DNA of 64,000 nucleotides. It comes from Planctomycetota bacterium. GTDB lineage: Bacteria; Planctomycetota; Phycisphaerae; Phycisphaerales; SM1A02. Shown piece after piece: positions 4,306 through 43,725 of this stretch (the stretch's first letter is position 1; every line of letters begins with the position of its first letter). Where the stretch lies: assembly GCA_003671075.1 (NCBI GenBank), contig QWPT01000002.1, positions 1 to 64,000 on the forward strand, written 5' to 3'. The translations under genes and the position numbers were made by a program. The notes beneath the pieces were generated by a model that worked only from the letters and a program-made list of their open reading frames with translations, searched no databases and was not told the origin of the DNA.

Positions 4306-4380
4306 GCGCTTGCTCCGTGCTTGCTCAGCGCATGCTCAGCGCATGCTCCGTGCTTACTCAGCGCTTGCTCAGCGCTTACT
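4306..4380 (-). repeat. 11-bp degenerate tandem repeat, about 6.8 copies, overlapping the 3' end of the TlpA-like gene
   Basis: Minus strand reads agtaagcgctg|agcaagcgctg|agtaagcacgg|agcatgcgctg|agcatgcgctg|agcaagcacgg|agcaagcgc. Confidence 0.9.
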
Positions 4381-5718
4381 TTTGGCCCAGCGGTTGGCGG
4401 GTCCGCCTCCGCCATTCTTAGCGAGCAGCGCGCGATTGGCGGTCACCAGCTGGGTCATGATGTCGGGCGTGAGCGACATCGGGTGACCTTGCCAACGCAC
4501 AATCTTGTCAGCCGACATGATCGCAACATGGGGAATCCCGCGGATCTGGAAGACATTCTTCATGCGCGACTGCGGGTCGATTCCCACCGCGTAAGAGAAG
4601 TCAGACTTGCTGATTCTGTGCTTCAGAACGCCTACTTCGAAGTTCGAATTGGTTTCGTCGGAAATTCCCATGCAGGCGACATCGTCGGGGTAGGCCTTGG
4701 CAATCTCATTCATGTGTGGGATCGCCGCTCGACATGGGCCGCACCAGGTCGCCCAGAAGTCAAAGACCATGAGCTTTCCCTGGGTTTTAGGCTCGAAATT
4801 CCACCACTTCTGAATCGCGGGCTCGGGCCCCGGCTTGCCGCGCAAGTCGGCGGCGCTGCCGACGGCTGCAGTAAACTCGGGGAACACGACGGTGGCCTCA
4901 ATGACCTTCTCGTCGCGCTTCTTGGGCTCGATCGACGGGTCGTACTTCTCAGCCGCGAGTTCCTTGGCGGCGGAGGTGATGCCTTCCTCGCTGAGCCCGC
5001 CGTAGCGCAGGTTGCCCTGGCGATCGACGATGTACGCGATCGAATTGCGGTAGGCGCCGAGCGCGTCGCTGTAGGCGCCGTCGCTGTCGATCAGGATCGG
5101 CAGCTCGAGCTTGCGCTTCTCGATCGCGGCCTTCGCCTTGTCGGCGGCCTCAGGAGTGTGCACCGCGATGATGATGATGTCGTCGGCGCCGAGCTTGGTC
5201 TCGGTCACAGCGGCCTGCGCCTTGACCACCGCAACCAATCCGCCCACCGACTTCGAGGTGAATGCCTCGATGACCACGACCTTGCCGCGCAGGTCCTTCA
5301 TGTCCTTAAAGTTGGCATTGAGAAACTCGACGCTAGCGGGAATCGCCGGCGCGGCGTAGCCGATGGCGGCATCGACGGCGGCGCGATCGTCCTTGTCGAG
5401 CTTCGCGAACCACTTGGCCTTGGCTTTGGCGGCGTCGCGCTCTTCCTTGGCGGCGCGGGTTCCGGCCTTCTCCTTGTCCTTCTTGGTTTCGATCTTGGAA
5501 TCACCACCCTTGGAATCGCCATTTTGGGGCTTTGATTCGTCGGTCTTGTTGCCCGAATCCTGCCGCGCAAAAGATGCGGGCGTTGCGATGGTCATTGCAC
5601 CGACGATGGCGATGCAGGTGGCGAGCGAGAGTCCGAGGAAGTTCAGGCTGGTCTTGGTCGTGGCGTTCATGGTGGCGTTCATGGTGGCGTTCATGGTGGC
5701 TTTCGTCGTGGCTTTCAT
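4369..5718 (-). CDS. TlpA/thioredoxin-family protein with two thioredoxin-like domains
   Basis: C-terminal FWATWCGPCRAAIPHM active site; N-terminal LRGKVVVIEAFTSKSVGG...ILIDSDG domain without CxxC; signal-like segment. Confidence 0.8.
   Translation of the reverse strand: MKATTKATMNATMNATMNATTKTSLNFLGLSLATCIAIVGAMTIATPASFARQDSGNKTDESKPQNGDSKGGDSKIETKKDKEKAGTRAAKEERDAAKAKAKWFAKLDKDDRAAVDAAIGYAAPAIPASVEFLNANFKDMKDLRGKVVVIEAFTSKSVGGLVAVVKAQAAVTETKLGADDIIIIAVHTPEAADKAKAAIEKRKLELPILIDSDGAYSDALGAYRNSIAYIVDRQGNLRYGGLSEEGITSAAKELAAEKYDPSIEPKKRDEKVIEATVVFPEFTAAVGSAADLRGKPGPEPAIQKWWNFEPKTQGKLMVFDFWATWCGPCRAAIPHMNEIAKAYPDDVACMGISDETNSNFEVGVLKHRISKSDFSYAVGIDPQSRMKNVFQIRGIPHVAIMSADKIVRWQGHPMSLTPDIMTQLVTANRALLAKNGGGGPANRWAKSKR
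5647..5718 (-). repeat. 12-bp tandem repeat x6 encoding M(K/N)AT units at the N-terminus
   Basis: atgaaagccacg|acgaaagccacc|atgaacgccacc|atgaacgccacc|atgaacgccacg|accaagaccagc. Confidence 0.92.
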
Positions 5719-5806
5719 TTACAGGGGGAACTCCGAGCGAAAGTGTACAGGTCGATGCGGGGCGACCCGCGCCGTCGAGCAGATTTCCCGCGTTTCCGTG
5801 CGTGTT

Positions 5807-6667
5807 TCAGTGCTCGCGCGCCATCGAGGCGTTGTCGATCAAGCGCGTGTGGCCCAGTCGCGCCGCGATCAGTGCTCGGGTCGGTCGCACCAAAGCCGTT
5901 GTCGATTCATCGACGGGCATGAGCGTTCGCGCATCGCGGACAACCGCATACTCCGTCTCCAACCCGCACGAAACGAGCACCTCGTGCATGGCGGCCTCTG
6001 CGTCTTTGACCCGCTCGGCCGCGCGCGCCAACTGCAGTGCGCGCGAAAGAGCGAGGGCGGCGATGCGCTCATCGGCGCTCAGGTAGCGGTTGCGACTCGA
6101 CATCGCGAGCCCGTCCGTCTCGCGGATGGTGGCGCAGGGGACGATCTTCAGACCGCCGAAGCGCGCGCGGTCGGCCTCGACCATGTCGTCGACTAGCCGG
6201 AGTTGTTGGAAGTCCTTCTCGCCGAAGTACGCCGCCGACGCGCCCACGAGGTCAAACAGCCGGCCGACGACCAGCGCAACGCCAGCGAGGTGACCGGGCC
6301 GGCAGCTGTCCTCAAGCCCGGGCATGGTTGCGACATCGGGAAGGGCGAGCGCCGCCGACTCCACCCGCGCCGCCTCGAGCCCGCGCGGGTAGATCGCCTC
6401 GACCGACGGCACGAAGACCGCAGCCACGCCGAGCGGCTCGAGTAGCGCGCAATCGGAGTCGAGCGTCCGTGGATATCGGGCGTAGTCCTCCTTCGGACCG
6501 AACTGGGTCGGGTTCACAAAGATGCTCACCACCACCGGTCGACCGCCCGCGGCCGCGAGCCTCACCAACGATCCGTGCCCCTCGTGGAGCGCGCCCATGG
6601 TCGGCACAAATCCGCATCGGCGCAGGGAAAGGGACGAGAGTTCGGCGGGGTCTTCGATGATGCGCAT
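5807..6667 (-). CDS. panC: Pantoate--beta-alanine ligase
   Basis: GFVPTMGALHEGHGSLV, SIFVNPTQFGP, and DGLAMSSRNRYLS motifs. Confidence 0.95.
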   Translation of the reverse strand: MRIIEDPAELSSLSLRRCGFVPTMGALHEGHGSLVRLAAAGGRPVVVSIFVNPTQFGPKEDYARYPRTLDSDCALLEPLGVAAVFVPSVEAIYPRGLEAARVESAALALPDVATMPGLEDSCRPGHLAGVALVVGRLFDLVGASAAYFGEKDFQQLRLVDDMVEADRARFGGLKIVPCATIRETDGLAMSSRNRYLSADERIAALALSRALQLARAAERVKDAEAAMHEVLVSCGLETEYAVVRDARTLMPVDESTTALVRPTRALIAARLGHTRLIDNASMAREH

Positions 6668-43621: not shown

Positions 43622-43725
43622 CGGAGTCGTCGAAGAACTCGCCGAGTCCGTAAGTGAGCCGGAGTCGTCGAAGAACTCGCCGAGTCCGTAAGTGAGCCGG
43701 AGTCGTCGAAGAACTCGCCGAGTCC
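43622..43725. repeat. 38-bp tandem repeat, about 2.7 copies, in the rplB-rpsS spacer
   Basis: cggagtcgtcgaagaactcgccgagtccgtaagtgagc repeated identically, third copy partial. Confidence 0.95.

What the first reader, a model, noticed from the sequence alone, without database searches (positions are those of the whole stretch)
5647..5718. Start codon carried on a 12-bp tandem repeat (MKAT-TKAT-MNAT-MNAT-MNAT-TKTS)
Six 12-bp units form the first codons of the TlpA-like gene. Four units begin with ATG in frame (codons 1, 9, 13 and 17). Gain or loss of units would change the N-terminus before the signal peptide without shifting frame and would change the spacing of the start from its ribosome-binding site.
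Basis: partly seen in the sequence, partly recalled or inferred. Interest (0 to 1): 0.6.

Follow-up and report, generated by a model that had tools for sequence, protein, structure and literature searches.

The report
In-frame minisatellite overlapping a start codon
The first codons of an exported thioredoxin-like protein are a real 12-base tandem repeat, but it is one of well over a hundred unrelated short repeats scattered through this planctomycete genome, and relatives indicate that translation starts at the first ATG, so the repeat lengthens a tolerant part of the signal peptide rather than moving the start.

Summary
The repeat is real. On the minus strand, 5718 to 5647 reads MKAT-TKAT-MNAT-MNAT-MNAT-TKTS, with in-frame ATGs at codons 1, 9, 13 and 17. 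Its period-12 score is 33, against at most 9 in shuffled windows.

The proposed start switching is not supported. In 13 congeners the ortholog has TACACT, then (in 12) GGAG, then ATG and the signal peptide directly. Here the same elements point to codon 1; codons 9, 13 and 17 lie 36-60 nt from the GGAG. Unit changes would therefore lengthen the n-region downstream of the start.

No congener has this repeat. G002 and G011 carry a different 12-bp repeat (SQPK) at the same place, with equal copy number, although they differ by 12 bp at another repeat in the gene and by 33 bp at one upstream.

The locus is one of 189 arrays in 1.44 Mb of this genome, 12 bp being the commonest period. Array occupancy falls smoothly across gene starts, with no peak. 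Seven of 832 well-scored genes have their start codon in an array.

Best reading: an ordinary in-frame minisatellite, tolerated in a signal-peptide n-region.

The parts
4369..5718 (-). Gene of a 449-aa exported protein with two thioredoxin-fold stretches (Redoxin-like 138-246; AhpC-TSA/TlpA-like 312-409 with CGPC)
   Evidence: ORF; Pfam
5647..5718 (-). Six 12-bp units, codons 1-24; clear array 5660-5718, last unit degenerate
5716..5718 (-). ATG codon 1, the start supported by conserved upstream elements
5731..5734 (-). GGAG (Shine-Dalgarno), 12 nt before ATG codon 1; GGAG also present in 12 of 13 congeneric loci printed
5742..5747 (-). TACACT, presumed -10 promoter element, 23 nt before ATG codon 1; present in all 13 congeneric loci printed, 16-22 nt before ATG in 11 of them
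   Evidence: no sigma-70 match with a -35 box, so the promoter role is inferred from conservation
5566..5646 (-). Hydrophobic and c-region of the signal peptide (LNFLGLSLATCIAIVGAMTIATPASFA), where alignment with congeners resumes
   Evidence: hydropathy 2.40; cleavage site inferred

Best explanation
The array is a species-specific minisatellite made by tandem duplication (presumably replication slippage) of a 12-bp segment that includes the gene's own start codon. Translation begins at codon 1, chosen by an upstream GGAG conserved in the genus, so the extra units encode a longer, hydrophilic n-region (K2, K6, K22) in front of an otherwise normal signal peptide. The n-region tolerates such inserts if frame is kept, and the signal peptide is presumably cleaved, so the mature protein is unchanged. 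It is one instance of a genome-wide load of independent short arrays; a few fall on start codons because arrays are common upstream of genes and thin out into coding sequence. Shown: the array, its absence in congeners, the conserved upstream geometry, the genome-wide load. Inferred: slippage as the cause, codon 1 as the start used in the cell, neutrality.
For: Congeners start right before the signal peptide, with conserved TACACT / GGAG / ATG geometry, and lack the array. A different 12-bp repeat (CCCAAGTCACAG, SQPK) sits in the same n-region in G002 and G011; those two loci, 95.4% identical, differ by one 12-bp unit at another repeat inside the gene and by 33 bp at a repeat upstream of it. 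The own genome holds 189 arrays in 1.44 Mb: 514 per Mb intergenic, 140 in the first 75 bp of genes, 54 in gene bodies. In the first 1.05-Mb sample, with masked N runs removed, 50 of 50 arrays lying inside genes had periods divisible by three, against 32 of 56 intergenic ones. Occupancy declines smoothly through start codons, about 0.02 upstream to 0.008 at the start and about 0.005 inside. Other genes show the same thing with unrelated units: MNNTTNNTMNNTMNNS (C88), MIGRMIGRMIHR (C37), MLPVMLPIMLPV (C70), MLSPMLSPMLNP (C22). The C88 gene's congeneric orthologs align only from residues 10-23 onward. Lake Planctomycetota are reported to have unusually many structural variants, with noncoding deletions often at intergenic tandem repeats, for which slippage was suggested (PMC9426551).
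Against: GGAG-to-ATG spacing here (12 nt) is longer than in most congeners (6-8), so initiation at codon 1 may be weaker. Only 37.5% of well-scored genes in this genome show a Shine-Dalgarno core, so SD-independent initiation at a later ATG cannot be excluded. Five of the seven genes whose start lies in an array have an N-terminal hydrophobic segment, against about 30% of all genes, which hints at non-random placement; the wider test (array within codons 1-25) is not significant (P = 0.20).
Confidence: 0.85

Rival explanations
1. Tuning device: the array offers several in-frame starts, and unit number sets the ratio of long and short n-regions or the amount of exported protein.
For: Four in-frame ATGs; the same architecture in several other, mostly exported, proteins of this genome; SD use is low genome-wide.
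Against: Only codon 1 has a Shine-Dalgarno; upstream geometry is conserved and points to codon 1; no congener keeps the array; no peak of arrays at starts; the SQPK array in G002 and G011 has constant copy number and no internal ATG.
Confidence: 0.08
2. True start at a later ATG (codon 9, 13 or 17); the units upstream of it are untranslated leader.
For: The start of the close congener G008 matches about codon 19-20 of this protein; the sequence before that is not conserved.
Against: Would need initiation 36-60 nt past the GGAG without a local Shine-Dalgarno, although the GGAG and its distance from the start are conserved.
Confidence: 0.06
3. Assembly artefact of a draft, probably metagenome-assembled, genome.
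For: The genome is a 113-contig draft and repeats are error-prone in assembly.
Against: The array is 59-72 bp, shorter than an ordinary short read; its units differ by diagnostic substitutions; the frame is intact; and similar arrays are found in independently assembled congeners.
Confidence: 0.03

Closest known systems
Tandem repeats of lake Planctomycetota associated with structural variants (PMC9426551)
   Same: Same phylum; many short tandem repeats, mostly intergenic; slippage proposed
   Different: That report concerns intergenic repeats and population deletions; here the array overlaps a start codon, and population variation was not measured
Borg element tandem repeats / aaTRs (PMC9879509)
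   Same: Units unique to each locus, genome-specific, in-ORF units divisible by three; aaTR proteins enriched in signal peptides
   Different: Bacterial genome; units imperfect and mostly about 12 bp; ATG is depleted in Borg aaTRs but carried by several arrays here
Phase-variable contingency loci with start-proximal repeats (e.g. CAAT repeats of Haemophilus lic1; general knowledge, not looked up)
   Same: Repeat lies at the start of the gene
   Different: Unit is a multiple of three, so no frame switching; repeat lies downstream of the supported start

Membership tests
In-frame minisatellite / VNTR | Head-to-tail units of about 9 bp or more, above chance | tested here: met
In-frame minisatellite / VNTR | Period divisible by three inside the ORF | tested here: met
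   12 bp; all arrays inside genes of the first sample likewise
In-frame minisatellite / VNTR | Copy number varies among strains | not testable with these tools
   No second strain of the species is held; nearest orthologs are 72% identical in protein
Phase-variable contingency locus | Unit change switches frame or promoter/RBS spacing | tested here: not met
   12-bp unit keeps frame; array lies downstream of promoter-like element, Shine-Dalgarno and ATG1
Borg-type aaTR | Perfect (near-identical) repeat units in the ORF | tested here: not met
   Units differ at several positions; only units 3 and 4 are identical
Extended signal peptide (ESPR) of autotransporters | Match to the ESPR profile in the n-region | tested here: not met
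   Pfam scan finds only thioredoxin-fold families

The most novel reading that the evidence does not exclude
In this planctomycete genus, start-codon-bearing 12-bp arrays on exported proteins are a favoured source of variation, giving ladders of in-frame starts and signal-peptide n-region lengths that tune export.
Probability: 0.06. Interest if true: 0.65.

Novelty: new member of a known kind. Interest (0 to 1): 0.27.

Why it matters
As a single locus it matters little. It does show that the minisatellite load known from intergenic DNA of lake Planctomycetota also reaches start codons and signal peptides (start codon inside an array in about 1% of genes here). That can mislead automatic start calling, and it gives a natural series for testing how much n-region length export tolerates.

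Tried and rejected
Start-codon targeting: rejected, as array occupancy shows no peak at starts. Signal-peptide enrichment: inconclusive (P = 0.20 for arrays within codons 1-25). Loss of mismatch repair as cause of the load: a MutS domain is present in all 21 genomes searched, own genome included; MutL was not searched. A mobile or shared repeat family: the only other own-genome DNA match to the region is an independent repeat at the start of the unrelated C88 gene, and the M(N/K)xT pattern matched three congeners at unrelated places only. Paper searches for start-codon tandem repeats, minisatellites with signal peptides and n-region length variation found no matching report.

Full report
Observation. 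The minus strand from 5718 to 5647 consists of six 12-bp units that encode MKAT-TKAT-MNAT-MNAT-MNAT-TKTS, with in-frame ATG at codons 1, 9, 13 and 17. TRF reports 5660-5718, period 12, 4.9 copies, 91% matches; the sixth unit is degenerate. The period-12 score is 33; twenty shuffles of the 64-kb window gave at most 9.

The gene. ORF 4369-5718 (449 aa) matches thioredoxin-fold families twice: a Redoxin-like stretch at 138-246 and an AhpC-TSA/TlpA-like stretch at 312-409 with CGPC. A typical signal peptide follows the repeat. A panC-like gene lies upstream (5807-6667, same strand) and an IscS-like gene starts further up on the plus strand (both named from the sequence). The congeners include a Planctomycetota genome with a ZH- (I read it as Lake Zurich) isolate name (L034); placement in the Phycisphaerae is my reading, not a tool result.

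Which start. Orthologs were found in 14 congeneric genomes with strong matches and their N-termini were read. In the 13 congeneric loci that could be printed with a TACACT element, that element precedes the start in all; GGAG is present in 12, with a spacing to ATG of 6-8 nt in 11 and 11 nt in G007. G004 has no GGAG, and G012 and G004 have longer leaders. In the window TACACT ends 23 nt and GGAG ends 12 nt before codon 1. The later ATGs would be 36, 48 and 60 nt from GGAG and have no Shine-Dalgarno of their own. In the congeners the signal peptide begins soon after ATG. So the array is an insertion between a conserved start region and the hydrophobic core. Unit gain or loss would change n-region length, not the spacing of the supported start from its ribosome-binding site. 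Shine-Dalgarno cores are seen in only 37.5% of well-scored genes, so minor internal initiation is possible.

Relatives. No congener has this array. G002 and G011 carry an unrelated 12-bp array (CCCAAGTCACAG, SQPK) in the same n-region, with the same number of units and one substitution. Their genes with upstream DNA are 95.4% identical, yet differ by one 12-bp unit (AEKA) inside the gene and by 33 bp in a repeat upstream. So repeat-length change does occur in this gene family, but the start-proximal array was the stable one in that pair.

Genome context. A sample of 1.44 Mb of this genome holds 189 tandem arrays (periods 6-30), 131 per Mb: 514 per Mb between genes, 140 in the first 75 bp of genes, 54 in gene bodies, 141 in the last 75 bp. 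Genes were called with a simple script of mine (codon usage, start codon, Shine-Dalgarno bonus), so starts are approximate. The units are mostly unrelated to each other and 12 bp is the commonest period. In the earlier 1.05-Mb sample, every array lying within a gene had a period divisible by three, while arrays running over stop codons did not; the latter follows from how such arrays end a frame. Congeners range from 28 to 135 arrays per Mb and two other genera of the family from 0 to 25, all from small samples. Occupancy falls smoothly across gene starts, so starts are not targeted. Seven of 832 well-scored genes have their start codon inside an array, among them MNNTTNNTMNNTMNNS (C88), MIGRMIGRMIHR (C37), MLPVMLPIMLPV (C70) and MLSPMLSPMLNP (C22); a lipoprotein-like gene on C24 (MSRIMSKVMN) also has an array running through its start but scored below that cut. 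Five of the seven have an N-terminal hydrophobic segment against about 30% of genes; the broader test gives P = 0.20.

Mechanism. The simplest account is slippage-type tandem duplication of a segment that included ATG, tolerated because 12 bp keeps frame and because n-regions accept hydrophilic, weakly basic sequence. Slippage and neutrality are inferred, not shown. A MutS domain is present in all 21 genomes searched, so loss of MutS does not explain the load.

Comparison. PMC9426551 reports that lake Planctomycetota carry unusually many structural variants, with noncoding deletions often at intergenic tandem repeats. Borg elements (PMC9879509) show genome-specific, in-frame repeats enriched in signal-peptide proteins, but with perfect units and with ATG depleted. 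The present locus is an in-frame minisatellite and fails the tests for a frame-switching contingency locus. Novelty is low; the recurrence at start codons is a modest extension of what is known.

Noticed in passing
Own-genome sample (G000, 1.44 Mb): CATG is over-represented in tandem-array units: 41 of 189 arrays against 13.1 expected from random units of the same class; also in intergenic arrays more than 100 bp from starts, 19 against 7.2. Cause unknown.
   Followed up: partly
window 4306-4377: Another array (period 11/33, GCGCTTGCTCA-like, 6.5 copies) overlaps the 3' end of the same TlpA-like gene.
   Followed up: no
window 43622-43725: Perfect 38-bp unit repeated 2.7 times, longer and cleaner than the other arrays of the window.
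   Followed up: no
window 5647-5718 and G000:C88:10150-10197: In both start-borne arrays the second unit has ACG in place of ATG (MKAT-TKAT-..., MNNT-TNNT-...); perhaps coincidence.
   Followed up: no
L042 (G013:C7:123835): ATGAAGCACACC twice at the start of a pseudopilin-like ORF (MKHTMKHTGKKSVLARSGITITEV...), another start-borne 12-bp repeat in a congener.
   Followed up: partly
G000 sample, 14 arrays (e.g. C37:52943-53012, C1:121190-121254): Arrays with periods not divisible by three run over stop codons, so C-terminal tails end inside repeats.
   Followed up: no
   Followed up: no
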